From contig JACZJN010000184.1 of NCBI GenBank assembly GCA_014860565.1, positions 1 to 38,109 of the forward strand: DNA of 38,109 bases, given 5' to 3'. Source of the DNA: Bacteroidota bacterium. GTDB lineage: Bacteria > Bacteroidota > Ignavibacteria > SZUA-365. A program made the position numbers and the translations under genes. Positions 15,945-20,144 of this stretch are shown in pieces. How positions within the stretch are numbered: the stretch's first letter is position 1; each line of letters begins with the position of its first letter. The notes under the pieces are model-generated. The model searched no databases. It saw only the letters and a program-made list of their open reading frames with translations, and was not told where the DNA came from.

Positions 15945-17266
15945 TTCACCCGCGTCTCCCGCACCGCGCGCAGCATCGGGGGCGTGAGCCAGGCGTTTGC
16001 GGCGAGACGTCCGGCCATCAGGGCGATAGCCGCGGCGACCGCACCCACCGCATCGAAGACGAGGATCGCGACCGCAAGCGTGATGATGATCACGCTGACT
16101 TCCAGCACGGTTGCCAGCGTCACGGGGCCGGTGCGTTTCGTCGCCACGAGCACGGAACGCTGGAAGGAGAGCAGCACCGACGTCCCGGGCATCAGCACCA
16201 GCAGCTGCGCTGGAAGTATCGCGAAAGCGGCGAGCAGGGGAGAAAGCCCTGAAAGATCGAGAAACCAGAAATCCGCGAGCGGCGTCATCGCGATGCACGC
16301 GAGCCCCGCGACGGCGGCGACGCCGAGTCCCACGGCAAAATTCCGGACGACGCGAAAATGTTCCATATGCCTGCCGAAACGGGCGATGGCAACTTCCTGA
16401 TACGACAATCCGAAGCTGCGGAAGAGGAACACCAGGGAGGTCACCACGGGCATCACGGCGAGGGATTCGAGCGGCATGCGCGATTGACCGAGAAAGAACG
16501 TGACCATCGGCTGCACGCCGAGTGCGAGGATCGACGTCATGGCGAGGGGATAGTAAAAAGAGAAAATCGAGCGATAGCTCATGGCGGCGGTCGGATCGTC
16601 TGCTCCATGCAGGAGACGGTGGATGGTCCTCCGCACCATGAGGCGACTCGCCACCGCTTCGATGGTCACGCCGGCGGCGAGCGCGGCTCCTCCCACGGCG
16701 GCACCCGGGAGATCGGTCAAGGTGGCGGCGAGGACCGCCGTTCCCGACATCGAAACAAGCCGTATGATGGTGCCGTAGGCAATGCGGCGGGTGAGGTTGT
16801 GACGGATGAGGAGTCCCTGGTAGAATCTCCGGAATCCGATTGCGGCTGGCCATGGCAGCAGCAGCGCCGTCGCCAGATGCGTCAGCCGTTCGACTTCGTC
16901 CGGGAGGCCGATCAGGTCGCTGGCAATAAACGAGAATACCGGGGGTATGATCACTATCAGCATGATGACGGTGATGCCGCCGTTGAGCATCAGGGTGAAA
17001 TTGCGCAGGCGGAGGTAGGAGGTCCGATCCGAAACAAGCGCGGTGGACGCGCTCATCATCATGATGATGGGCGATTCGACCAGGAGCGCAAAGGAAAAGG
17101 CCACACCGTAGGCGGCGAGATTGAATTTCGGATCCGCCAAGCGCGCGATGACCGCCGCGAGGAAGGGTCCTTCGACGGACATCATCAGCCAGGTCGCCAG
17201 CATGGGGAGCCAGAATACCAGCAGTGTCCGTGTGGTCACGGAGCGATGTTCGGATGCGTGGGGCAT
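15941..17266 (-). CDS. MATE/MOP-superfamily membrane protein (flippase or exporter)
   Basis: A 441-residue polytopic protein with about twelve hydrophobic segments arranged as in MATE/MVF-type (MOP superfamily) transporters. Segments include TLLVFWLPMLATWLMM, LAAYGVAFSFALLVESPIIMMM, a loop with RFYQGLLIRHNLTRR, and FLFRSFGLSYQEVAIARFGRH near the middle. The acidic ARLADPKFNLAAYG motif in helix 2 recalls MATE proteins. It may move a lipid-linked molecule or a drug; no substrate can be assigned. The start at ATG 17266 lies inside the end of a 93-codon ORF, and the stop overlaps gatB. A truncated paralogue sits at 19821-20144, 69 of 77 residues identical at the N terminus. Confidence 0.82.
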   Translation of the reverse strand: MPHASEHRSVTTRTLLVFWLPMLATWLMMSVEGPFLAAVIARLADPKFNLAAYGVAFSFALLVESPIIMMMSASTALVSDRTSYLRLRNFTLMLNGGITVIMLIVIIPPVFSFIASDLIGLPDEVERLTHLATALLLPWPAAIGFRRFYQGLLIRHNLTRRIAYGTIIRLVSMSGTAVLAATLTDLPGAAVGGAALAAGVTIEAVASRLMVRRTIHRLLHGADDPTAAMSYRSIFSFYYPLAMTSILALGVQPMVTFFLGQSRMPLESLAVMPVVTSLVFLFRSFGLSYQEVAIARFGRHMEHFRVVRNFAVGLGVAAVAGLACIAMTPLADFWFLDLSGLSPLLAAFAILPAQLLVLMPGTSVLLSFQRSVLVATKRTGPVTLATVLEVSVIIITLAVAILVFDAVGAVAAAIALMAGRLAANAWLTPPMLRAVRETRVK

Positions 17267-17517
17267 TGGTTGAATTCCAGCACCGCGACCACCTGGTCGA
17301 ACCTGCCGTCGGCACGGACGAGTCCCATGGTCCCGGCGAAAATCTTCGGTCCGGTGACGATGCGGCGCGGGTGTCCACGTTCAATCGCACTTTCGTCGTC
17401 GAGAAACATCGGCGGATGCAGGTCCGCGTTATCGAGAAAGGTGTCGAGTTTCGCCGTGTTGACGGTGCGCCGCGGCGTCACGGTGTACAATCCGGTATGG
17501 AGGGATTCAAAATACAT
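17236..17517 (-). CDS. Small hypothetical protein upstream of the flippase gene
   Basis: A 93-codon ORF beginning at ATG 17517 (MYFESLHTGLYTV) and overlapping the flippase start by 31 nt. It has no signal peptide or membrane segment and I do not recognise a family. The composition looks like a folded cytosolic protein, with motifs RRIVTGPKIFAGTM and RFDQVVAVLEF. It is GC-rich at third positions like the operon behind it, which favours a real gene. The ribosome binding site is weak. It has no counterpart in front of the truncated flippase copy at 20144. Confidence 0.5.
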   Translation of the reverse strand: MYFESLHTGLYTVTPRRTVNTAKLDTFLDNADLHPPMFLDDESAIERGHPRRIVTGPKIFAGTMGLVRADGRFDQVVAVLEFNQCPTHPNIAP

Positions 17518-17690: not shown

Positions 17691-17702
17691 GGGGGGGGGG
17701 GG
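17691..17702. repeat. Homopolymeric tract of 12 G
   Basis: Twelve consecutive G residues lie one base before a TTGACA -35 box. Tracts of this length are prone to slipped-strand mispairing, and next to a promoter they are a known route to phase-variable transcription in other bacteria. Length variation here is not shown. Confidence 0.9.
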
Positions 17703-17703
17703 C

Positions 17704-17732
17704 TTGACATCGTGCAAGAGCATCCCCATATT
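17704..17732 (+). promoter_or_regulatory. Sigma70-like promoter of the MauE/T9SS/Cys-rich cassette
   Basis: TTGACA (17704-17709), 17-nt spacer, CATATT (17727-17732). The spacing is optimal and the -35 perfect. The G tract abuts the -35 box and a 16-bp palindrome starts within the -10 box. The first gene starts 113 nt downstream. Confidence 0.55.
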
Positions 17733-17845: not shown

Positions 17846-18352
17846 ATGAGACGAATGCAGGAGAGTGCATCATGCTGGGCTATTTGGCGCAGGGGCGGAC
17901 AAAATGATATCGGCAGCGGGAGATCCGTACTCGGATCAGCGCACTACTATCACAATATTGTCCGAGCTATTTGTGGGGTGATATTTGTTGCAAGTGGCGT
18001 ATTGAAAGTGATTTCACCAATTGATTACTTTGCAGCCATCGCATCGCTCGTGCAGGTATATCCGGCTGATGCAATCATTGCCGTGCTTGTCCCCGTTCTA
18101 GAAATGTACTTTGGTTTTTGCTTGCTTTTAAACAGAAACGTAAAGGGTACTTCCATAATCTTGCTTGTTGGAATATTAGCCGTCAATTTGTTCGTCTTGT
18201 TCGTGAATCCTCAGGGTGTCCGGAGTTGCGGTTGCTTTGGTGATTTCGTCCCACTGCCGCTGGATTACACTTTTTACCTGAAAAACATCATACTGAGCAC
18301 GATGCTCATCGTAACGTATCAAAGTGCGAAATCAGCAGATTTATATAGATAA
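17846..18352 (+). CDS. MauE/DoxX-like membrane protein with a CxC motif
   Basis: A 168-residue protein starting at ATG 17846, 8 nt after GAGGA. A short basic N terminus is followed by four hydrophobic segments (AICGVIFVASGVLKVISP; YPADAIIAVLVPVLEMYFGFCLLL; TSIILLVGILAVNLFVLFV; NIILSTMLIVTY). Between the third and fourth lies SCGCFGDF with Cys128 and Cys130. The GVLKVISPIDYF entry and the CGCFG loop are typical of MauE/DoxX-like proteins, which are tied to thiol or disulfide chemistry at the membrane. It is first in a three-gene cassette whose last product is a six-cysteine secreted peptide, so a role in its redox maturation is a reasonable inference. The gene is AT-richer than its surroundings. 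Confidence 0.8.
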   Translation: MRRMQESASCWAIWRRGGQNDIGSGRSVLGSAHYYHNIVRAICGVIFVASGVLKVISPIDYFAAIASLVQVYPADAIIAVLVPVLEMYFGFCLLLNRNVKGTSIILLVGILAVNLFVLFVNPQGVRSCGCFGDFVPLPLDYTFYLKNIILSTMLIVTYQSAKSADLYR

Positions 18353-18394
18353 TCGTCGTGACATGTTGTAAAGGAGTAATCTGGAGGTGTCGAA

Positions 18395-19453
18395 ATGTCG
18401 GGTAATGATGCTGAAACCTTGGTAAATCGTGGACAAAAAAAACGCGCGCTCTCACCGATTGTCTCGACCGTTATCACGCTGGCTGTGTTGACAATCGTGT
18501 TGATGGCTACGAATGGACAGAAGGTCTGGAGTGACGTGTTTACGCGGACGCGAACTATCGATCGGCTGTATGATTATCGAGAGATTGCGGCCGTCTATGA
18601 TAGTGTCGATATTAAGCTCACCTATGGTGAAATGTTCTTCATCAACGATGAAGACAGTAGCCATATATACGCTGAATCTGTCTATGATAGCACGTGGTAC
18701 TGCGACTCAAAAGCGAACGTGAATAATAAACTAACGTGGAAAGCCTTCCCGTGCAATAACAACACAGTCATATCAATATGGAAGGCCGCCTCGTTCTGTG
18801 TGGCGGATACGAATTTTACAAATCTGTGCTTCCCCGACACCGTCTCATGGGTTCTTCGCCTGTATGATGCCAGCAGCGGTTTCGTATTGGCAACACTAGA
18901 TAGCACCGTTCTTTTTCGGACGATGACTGGACGTGATTTCCCGGAGGCCTATGGATTCCAGTCGAGTGATGTTTGGGAACATGATTCCTGGAGAATCGGA
19001 GATGTGGTCCCGGGAAATGTTGATTCCGTTTATTTGAAGGCGGAAGTGGATGCATTTGCGGGTAATGATAGTGATTTCTTTCTCTCGGATTCATTTACAA
19101 TAAACGCGAAGTTCTCTGATGATGCCGGCTTTTCAAAGGCTAGGGAAACGCCGACGAATAGTAGCGTAATCAACAGCTTGGTGTTCACAATCGATGCGTA
19201 CCCAAATCCTGTTTCGTCTGGGAAACAGTTGAATGTTCGTTTCAAAGCTGATCAAGACTTTTCTGGACGCCTCTGTTTGATTAACACTTTAGGCCAAGTT
19301 CTTCATACATTTAAGTCCGGTCGGATTGAGAAGAATACGTATTCCTACTCGTATTCGCTTGAACGATCTCTGCCTAGTGGCTCGTACTGGATCATCTTGG
19401 CAAGCAGGGCAAACGAAATAGTGGACAAGACCGAAGTAATACTAGTCAAGTAG
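18395..19453 (+). CDS. Hypothetical exported protein with C-terminal T9SS type A sorting domain
   Basis: A 352-residue protein with a strong GGAGG ribosome binding site 7 nt before ATG 18395. After a basic start, residues 21-40 (LSPIVSTVITLAVLTIVLMA) form a hydrophobic export signal or anchor. The middle has no recognised domain, is rich in Asp, Ser and aromatic residues and carries several cysteines. From about residue 268 it shows a T9SS type A sorting domain: AYPNPVSSG, GRLCLINTLGQVLH and LPSGSYWIIL. It should therefore cross the outer membrane through the type IX system. It follows the MauE-like gene by 42 nt and precedes the Cys-rich gene by 15 nt. Function unknown. Confidence 0.8.
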   Translation: MSGNDAETLVNRGQKKRALSPIVSTVITLAVLTIVLMATNGQKVWSDVFTRTRTIDRLYDYREIAAVYDSVDIKLTYGEMFFINDEDSSHIYAESVYDSTWYCDSKANVNNKLTWKAFPCNNNTVISIWKAASFCVADTNFTNLCFPDTVSWVLRLYDASSGFVLATLDSTVLFRTMTGRDFPEAYGFQSSDVWEHDSWRIGDVVPGNVDSVYLKAEVDAFAGNDSDFFLSDSFTINAKFSDDAGFSKARETPTNSSVINSLVFTIDAYPNPVSSGKQLNVRFKADQDFSGRLCLINTLGQVLHTFKSGRIEKNTYSYSYSLERSLPSGSYWIILASRANEIVDKTEVILVK

Positions 19454-19468
19454 CATATAGGGTGTGTC

Positions 19469-19759
19469 ATGAAAAGATTAACGTATCTCGCGTTTGGGTT
19501 GATTATTGCCAGCCAAGCTGTTCTTCTCACTATTGCGACCGTCTCGGATTCAATTGCAGGTACGCCGGGGACTCAAACTGCCCCGATGAAGGGTGGATGC
19601 CCAGCATGGTATGGCCCTGTAAGATATGATTGCCACCCAGATGATTGTCCACCTATTGGGCCTTTCAAAGATTCTAAATGCTCAGTTACTGGGTTACGTA
19701 AATACACAATCTGCGGTGAAGAAAAAAAGTGTATTACGCCGACGGATTCTTGGCGCTAA
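19469..19759 (+). CDS. Small secreted six-cysteine protein
   Basis: A 96-residue protein. A signal peptide (KRLTYLAFGLIIASQAVLLTI, probable cleavage near residue 30) precedes a mature part of about 65 residues with six cysteines (44, 55, 60, 71, 82, 88), consistent with up to three disulfides. Motifs such as DCHPDDCPPIGPF are not familiar to me. Its 15-nt spacing from the T9SS-tailed gene suggests one operon with that gene and the MauE-like gene. It could be a secreted effector, bacteriocin-like peptide or surface component; none of these can be shown. No homologous family can be named with confidence. Confidence 0.7.
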   Translation: MKRLTYLAFGLIIASQAVLLTIATVSDSIAGTPGTQTAPMKGGCPAWYGPVRYDCHPDDCPPIGPFKDSKCSVTGLRKYTICGEEKKCITPTDSWR

Positions 19760-19788: not shown

Positions 19789-19820
19789 CAGCAGGTTCAT
19801 TAATAGAAATGAACCTGCTG
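19789..19820 (+). terminator. Strong hairpin at the end of the accessory cassette
   Basis: A perfect 13-bp inverted repeat (CAGCAGGTTCATT and its complement) with a 6-nt loop lies 30 nt after the Cys-rich gene. The following bases are TTATAC rather than a clean T run, so it is a plausible but imperfect intrinsic terminator. It also covers the end of the truncated flippase frame on the minus strand. Confidence 0.55.
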
Positions 19821-20144
19821 TTATACATTCAGCAGACTGACGTAAGAACAGTGCTGTCCAGGACGTTTGAGATTGTATAGGTAATTGAGAGTCTTGAAGA
19901 AGATCTCGATCTGCAGCGCGGTGGACGCGCTCATCATCATGATGATCGGGGCCTCGACCATCAGGGCGAAGGAGAATGCCACGCCGTATGCCGCGAGATT
20001 GAACTTCGGATCCGCAAGGCGTGCGATCACTGCCGCGAGAAAGAGTCCCTCGATCCACATCATCAGCCAGGTCGCCAGCAACGGCAGCCAGAAGACGAGC
20101 AGCGTCCGTGTCGTCACGGTGCTATGTTCGGATGCGTGGGGCAT
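19821..20144 (-). pseudogene. Truncated N-terminal copy of the MATE-like flippase gene
   Basis: From ATG 20144 the frame encodes 77 residues aligned without gaps to the start of the intact flippase at 17266, 69 of them identical (MPHASEH through SASTAL). At base 19914 the similarity stops abruptly, and 30 unrelated codons follow to a stop at 19821. About 360 residues of the family are missing, so the product cannot be a transporter. The copy shows synonymous and conservative changes from the intact gene, so it looks like an older tandem paralogue that was cut when the accessory DNA between 17518 and 19913 arrived or when its tail was deleted. The 5' flank differs from that of the intact gene. 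Confidence 0.85.

What the first reader, a model, noticed from the sequence alone, without database searches (positions are those of the whole stretch)
17846..19759. Accessory cassette: MauE-like redox membrane protein, T9SS-tailed protein and a six-cysteine secreted peptide
Three co-directional genes with good ribosome binding sites are more AT-rich than the neighbours and end in a 13-bp hairpin. A thiol-type membrane protein (CGC loop) next to a disulfide-rich exported peptide suggests oxidative maturation, and the T9SS-tailed protein suggests surface display or a partner. I do not know a described system with this make-up; it could be a peptide toxin, signal or adhesion unit.
Basis: partly seen in the sequence, partly recalled or inferred. 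Interest (0 to 1): 0.68.

Follow-up and report, generated by a model that had tools for sequence, protein, structure and literature searches.

The report
T9SS-tailed protein paired with cysteine-rich miniprotein
A short block of foreign-looking DNA carries a secreted surface-type protein and a small disulfide-type exported protein whose pairing recurs in distant relatives and appears undescribed, while the third gene, a redox membrane protein, is a one-off neighbour.

Summary
The three genes are real: a MauE-family membrane protein (17846-18352), P2, a 352-aa exported protein with a weak T9SS-type tail (18395-19453), and P3, a 96-aa exported six-Cys protein (19469-19759), at 43-48% G+C amid about 61%. 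The MauE/P2/P3 triplet does not recur; MauE sits beside P2 only here. The P2+P3 pair does recur: by a fixed rule an exported Cys-rich ORF follows 17 of 52 P2-family genes (11 of 38, then 6 of 14 new), against 0 of 28 generic T9SS-tailed genes and 0 of 85 other large genes. A P3-first search found 8 places, all with P2 upstream. P2 and P3 diverge together (Mantel r 0.86, n=11); one P3 pair has dN/dS 0.09. Apart from the P2 tail, neither matches a known family. The window's own P3 has no sequence relative; it belongs by position and architecture only. The cassette came in on foreign DNA that displaced the native start of a MATE gene. A G12 tract abuts its best promoter, which hints at phase variation. 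Most likely: an exported P2/P3 partner pair acting at or outside the cell surface. Function is inferred, not shown.

The parts
17691..17702 (+). G12 homopolymer, one base before the -35-like hexamer
   Evidence: 0.017 runs of 12 or more expected in the window
17704..17732 (+). best sigma-70-like site of the cassette: TTGACA-17-CATATT, 10 of 12
   Evidence: promoter-like sites in the region are not more frequent than in shuffles (6 against 4.8 +/- 2.4)
17846..18352 (+). MauE-family membrane protein, 168 aa, CGCFG motif, no C-terminal extra domain
   Evidence: Pfam MauE 3.8e-13; CGCFG shared with housekeeping copies at 13 loci, 12 distinct places
18395..19453 (+). P2: exported 352-aa protein, new core domain (about residues 56-250), 5 Cys, T9SS-type tail below the curated cut-off
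19469..19759 (+). P3: 96-aa exported protein with six Cys
   Evidence: pairing
19789..19820 (.). perfect 13-bp hairpin with 6-nt loop after P3
15941..17266 (-). intact MATE-type transporter gene; its first 230 bp appear to have come in with the cassette
   Evidence: the MATE name rests on the weak PF01554 match of the repeated 5' end (E 0.021)
19915..20144 (-). displaced native 5' end of the MATE-type gene (direct repeat, 85% identical); its upstream flank matches the nearest relative

Best explanation
P2 and P3 form a two-gene exported unit found in this class of Bacteroidota. P2 passes the inner membrane by Sec and, through its C-terminal domain, is sent by the type IX system to the cell surface or medium. 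P3 is exported by Sec, folds as a disulfide-rich miniprotein and works with P2 as its partner; I think P3 is either carried out on P2 or is the variable effector end of the complex, in contact with other cells or surfaces. In this genome the pair arrived with a stand-alone MauE-type protein that probably helps make its disulfides, on foreign DNA that recombined into the start of a MATE-type gene. Expression may be switched by slippage of a G12 tract at the promoter. Shown by computation: the genes, the recurrent pairing, purifying selection on one P3 pair, co-divergence, and the import. Inferred: type IX export of P2, disulfides, physical partnership, MauE's role, phase switching and the outward role.
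For: P2-family core in 9 of 16 genomes of the order, 20 places, and 17 of 395 sampled genomes of the phylum, all same class; the two P2 groups match profile to profile at 95.5%, E 1.5e-8. Exported Cys-rich ORF downstream: 11 of 38 and 6 of 14 new places, against 0 of 28 and 0 of 85; Fisher p 0.0016 and 7.5e-8 on the 11 of 38 alone. P3-first search: 8 of 8 places have P2 upstream, 2 of them outside the training set. dN/dS 0.09 for P3 and 0.10 for P2 in the same pair of loci. Mantel r 0.86, p 0.0002, and 0.65, p 0.0008, without a near-duplicate; CxC, C and C-x5-C kept in 11 of 11 P3s. Pairs sit alone among unrelated genes.
Against: Two thirds of P2-family genes show no P3 by the rule (35 of 52), including the relative with the highest core identity to the window P2 (L060, 38%). 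The tail of the window P2 is below both curated cut-offs. The window P3 does not match the P3 profile (hhalign probability 0.1%). P3 carries no T9SS tail, so its passage over the outer membrane is unproven. Structure models were too poor to use (pLDDT 37 and 47). Co-divergence also reflects shared species history. MauE next to P2 is a single case.
Confidence: 0.45

Rival explanations
1. P3 is a secreted antibacterial toxin or bacteriocin-like miniprotein and P2 is its carrier, anchor or immunity partner.
For: Diverse Cys-rich cargo beside a more conserved partner, sporadic distribution in 17 of 395 genomes, isolated insertion at different sites and tandem copies, low G+C, G tracts upstream, several frame-split P3 copies.
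Against: No toxin, bacteriocin or defence family hit. No separate immunity-like gene recurs beside the pairs in the maps. P3 evolves under strong constraint in the one pair measurable. No activity data.
Confidence: 0.25
2. P2/P3 is a structural or adhesive surface complex; P3 is a stabilising cap or subunit of P2.
For: T9SS-type tail of P2, co-divergence, abundance of T9SS-tailed proteins in these genomes.
Against: P3 is absent beside many P2 relatives.
Confidence: 0.25
3. The MauE gene works as a dedicated oxidoreductase for P3/P2 disulfides, like MauE for methylamine dehydrogenase. (This may hold together with any of the other readings.)
For: Same strand, 42-nt gap to P2, canonical CGCFG motif; six Cys in P3 and five in P2; MauE is described as speculated to form disulfides and also occurs in candidate peptide clusters (passages of PMC7794033).
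Against: Not linked to P2 in any other locus checked; the genome already has a longer housekeeping copy.
Confidence: 0.35
4. Copper-binding RiPP (bufferin/captophorin-like): Cys-rich exported peptide plus a DoxX/MauE membrane protein.
For: Weak HvfX hit (E 0.054); DoxX co-occurs with such peptides (passages of PMC12668002).
Against: HvfX score 13.7 against a cut-off of 80; P3 has no DUF2282 match; none of the flanking proteins scanned (MATE-type, SnoaL, DUF2164) is an MNIO/DUF692 enzyme.
Confidence: 0.03
5. The window P3 is a chance ORF or an unrelated gene and only P2 (with MauE) is meaningful here.
For: No sequence relative; weak ribosome site.
Against: Signal-type N-terminus, six Cys, 16-nt gap to P2, the same arrangement as in relatives; controls 0 of 113. 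Loose six-Cys spacing found in 0.18% of shuffles, though that pattern was set after seeing the data.
Confidence: 0.1

Closest known systems
MauE (PF07291) / BT_3928-type redox membrane proteins
   Same: Pfam match over the cut-off; CGCFG motif
   Different: Stand-alone 168-aa protein without the C-terminal part of the housekeeping copies; partner genes differ
T9SS type A cargo (TIGR04183 / PF18962)
   Same: Exported, weak tail match
   Different: Score below curated cut-offs; core domain matches no family; paired with a Cys-rich protein
NVEALA-type Bacteroidota peptides (recalled; no paper found)
   Same: Short exported Cys-containing protein beside another exported protein
   Different: No Pfam or NCBIfam match to that family; different leader and lineage
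Bufferins/captophorins with DoxX (HvfX)
   Same: Small Cys-rich exported peptide with a DoxX/MauE-like membrane protein
   Different: No MNIO enzyme among the flanking proteins scanned, no DUF2282, HvfX score far below the cut-off

Membership tests
MauE (PF07291) | Pfam score over the gathering cut-off | tested here: met
   50.3 bits against 27
MauE (PF07291) | Cys motif of the membrane domain (CGCFG) | tested here: met
   SCGCFG present; CGCFG at all 13 housekeeping loci shown, 12 distinct places
MauE (PF07291) | role in disulfide formation of an exported partner | not testable with these tools
   needs experiment
T9SS cargo (TIGR04183/PF18962) | curated score for the sorting domain | tested here: inconclusive
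   22.1 against 23 and 24.3 against 27 bits
T9SS cargo (TIGR04183/PF18962) | Sec export signal | tested here: met
   hydrophobic segment 19-37 after KKR, by hydropathy only; possible cleavage before Gln as in the Q-rule paper (passages of PMC5837995)
T9SS cargo (TIGR04183/PF18962) | organism uses T9SS cargo widely | tested here: met
   150 TIGR04183 matches in G000, the scoring limit; the secretion machinery itself was not searched
P3 profile from class relatives (A4) | profile match | tested here: not met
   hhalign probability 0.1%
P2 family (this work) | core profile match | tested here: met
   the window P2 seeds the family; best relative E 1.6e-18 in a protein search; A5-A2 95.5%
Bufferin/captophorin RiPP | DUF2282-type precursor and MNIO enzyme next to it | tested here: not met
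   no Pfam hit for P3; MATE-type, SnoaL and DUF2164 neighbours scanned
NVEALA peptides | Pfam/NCBIfam match | tested here: not met
   no hit for P3
Anti-phage defence | PADLOC model match | tested here: not met
   0 families for 7 proteins

The most novel reading that the evidence does not exclude
P2 is a dedicated type IX carrier that takes a Cys-rich passenger lacking its own sorting tail over the outer membrane. Lineages diversify passengers on the same carrier, the pair moves between genomes as a unit, its expression is phase-variable through promoter G tracts, and in the window it has captured its own disulfide-forming MauE protein.
Probability: 0.15. Interest if true: 0.82.

Novelty: new variant of a known kind. 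Interest (0 to 1): 0.55.

Why it matters
It defines an apparently unnamed two-gene exported module in uncultured Bacteroidota, with testable predictions: interaction, type IX export, disulfides, switching. If P3 rides on P2, it would be a case of the type IX system exporting a tail-less protein through a dedicated partner, and a source of diverse natural disulfide-rich miniproteins.

Tried and rejected
Tried without result: P3 alone in genome contigs (88 pattern matches, none confirmed) and in 12 genomes of the family (only the window copy is significant; next best 0.0037); P2 in viral contigs and plasmids; P2 profile and P3 against PDB sequences; PHROGs and PADLOC; the literature searches listed below. 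Single-sequence structure models of P2 and P3 were too poor for a fold search, so none was run. I did not send alignments with relatives for structure prediction, because the stated rule admits only window proteins and loci from other tools than the one that gave me the relatives.

Rejected: MauE/P2/P3 as a recurring triplet. Window P3 as a sequence relative of the A4 P3 family. P2 beside MATE in G006 as the same insertion: there a truncated P2 lies about 2.9 kb from MATE with other genes between, which may be coincidence.

Literature searches: MauE/cysteine-rich/disulfide/Bacteroidetes (0 papers); Kapabacteria/type IX/cysteine-rich (4 listed, none relevant by title and abstract start); NVEALA; bufferin/DoxX/cysteine; MauE/methylamine dehydrogenase/disulfide; type IX/phase variation/homopolymeric; type IX/Ignavibacteria/small secreted/cysteine. 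Of the papers I read only the passages shown. None of the listings describes this pair; most subscription papers are not held.

Full report
What is there. The cassette holds three ORFs on the + strand: a MauE-family membrane protein (17846-18352), P2 (18395-19453) and P3 (19469-19759). G+C is 0.43-0.48 against about 0.60-0.63 on both sides. Pfam calls the first MauE (3.8e-13, over the cut-off). The P2 tail scores just below both curated T9SS cut-offs, and P3 hits nothing. The first gene has the CGCFG motif of the longer housekeeping copies shown at 13 loci (12 distinct places), but lacks their C-terminal part, which I take for thioredoxin-like from recall. A perfect 13-bp hairpin follows P3 (19789-19820), without a clear T run; the terminator scan did not list it.

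Where it lies. The window is one contig of a 4.75-Mb assembly. The nearest named relatives by its MATE-type protein are Bacteroidetes MAG SZUA-365 (85%), then SH-MAG12, SH-MAG111 and uncultured Ignavibacteria MAGs, so I treat it as an Ignavibacteria-like Bacteroidota without formal placement.

How it arrived. The first 230 bp of the MATE-type gene are repeated on the far side of the cassette (17037-17266 and 19915-20144, 85%). Against the nearest relative, similarity runs past the start codon only in the far copy (to 20228), while in the intact gene it stops at 17269. The far copy is 84.1% identical to that relative over the 5' coding part and 54.7% in the flank; the intact gene's figures are 81.1% and 35.2%, the latter at background level. 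I infer that the far copy is the native gene start, and that the cassette came in with a foreign MATE 5' end. The region upstream of MATE varies among relatives; in one (L116) the DUF2164 gene lies near MATE without a cassette.

P2 has relatives. A protein search of 12 genomes of the family found P2 relatives in 3 genomes besides its own. A profile of six cores found 20 places in 9 of 16 genomes of the order. A profile of 16 cores found matches in 17 of 395 sampled genomes of the phylum, all in the same class. Seven of those loci are other T9SS-type proteins, mostly long, that I kept apart. A profile of the class group found matches in 17 of 391 genomes, and it matches the window group at 95.5% probability, E 1.5e-8 over 164 columns. 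Apart from the tail, P2 proteins match nothing convincing in Pfam, NCBIfam, PHROGs, PADLOC or PDB sequences (the best PHROGs hit has E 0.025).

The Cys-rich neighbour recurs. Reading downstream of P2 relatives showed short exported Cys-rich ORFs in several families. I then fixed a rule: start within -60 to +150 nt of the P2 stop, 60-230 aa, a hydrophobic N-terminal stretch, at least 5 Cys after it. It was met by 13 of 40 P2 loci with enough DNA (6 of 16 in the order, 7 of 24 in the class). Without two loci that had been found through P3 it is 11 of 38. Two P2 loci at contig ends (L036, L062) were left out. Controls: 0 of 28 generic TIGR04183 loci (30 drawn, 2 short of DNA), 0 of 85 other ORFs of 250 aa or more, and 0 of 6 of the set kept apart. 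Fisher p is 0.0016 against the first control and 7.5e-8 against the first two. The rule was set after I had seen the first loci. A second set found later gave 6 of 18 (21 loci, 3 short of DNA); four of the 18 were places seen before (L297, L303, L310, L315), so it is 6 of 14 new places. Together 17 of 52. By eye, L032 and some frame-split copies are missed by the rule. The relative with the highest core identity to the window P2 (L060, 38%) has no P3.

The link holds in both directions. A P3 profile of six sequences searched in 391 genomes gave 8 places in 6 genomes, and all 8 have a P2-family ORF directly upstream. Six were in the training set; the two others (L220, L222) are also paired. P3 is a real gene: between two paralogous pairs of one genome dN/dS is 0.09 for P3 and 0.10 for P2. 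Over 11 pairs, P2 and P3 identities go together (Mantel r 0.864, p 0.0002; without a near-duplicate r 0.648, p 0.0008), and CxC, C and C-x5-C are kept in 11 of 11 P3s. Shared species history adds to this correlation, although four pairs are paralogues in one genome. Pairs sit alone between unrelated genes, and one locus holds P2-P2-P3-P2.

The window P3 belongs by position, not by sequence. It has no relative at E below 0.001, and no match to the P3 profile (probability 0.1%). A loose six-Cys spacing pattern, set after seeing the data, fits it and 0.18% of its shuffles, but fits none of six other P3s of the order.

MauE is a one-off. Fifteen of 16 genomes of the order have a MauE copy over the cut-off, but only the window has one beside P2, and 84 other held loci with P2-profile matches (some overlapping) have none.

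A possible switch. A G12 tract (17691-17702) lies one base before TTGACA-17-CATATT, the best promoter-like site; 0.017 such runs are expected in the window. Upstream of 40 P2 loci (34,986 bases) there are 4 runs of 8 or more (window 12, L033 9, L090 8, L103 10), all G on the coding strand, against 12 in 1,041,755 background bases, which would give about 0.4. G runs of 9 or more also occur elsewhere in all 8 genomes checked. This was noticed after the fact and is a lead only.

Reading. The best working model is a surface or secreted partner complex with P3 as its variable disulfide-rich part. Export by type IX, disulfides, binding and the outward role are inferences. Single-sequence structure models were not usable.

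Noticed in passing
window 17037-17266 and 19915-20144: Direct repeat of the MATE-type gene's 5' end on both sides of the cassette; the far copy carries the native flank, so the cassette seems to have come in with a foreign gene start.
   Followed up: yes
window 17691-17702: G12 homopolymer one base before the -35-like hexamer of the cassette; G runs also lie upstream of P2 relatives in L033, L090, L103 and L104.
   Followed up: partly
L253 3785-8802: Tandem array of three P2-family genes and one P3 in one genome (G120), which also has further separate pairs.
   Followed up: partly
L088, L303 (same place as L085), L304, L064: P3-like genes that read in two frames, so several copies look frameshifted (assembly error, decay or switching).
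   Followed up: no
G000, G006, G007, G227: At least 150 T9SS-tail matches per genome (the scoring limit), a very large type IX cargo set.
   Followed up: no
L035 6713-7924: A truncated P2 relative without tail or P3 lies about 2.9 kb from the MATE-type gene in another genus (G006).
   Followed up: partly
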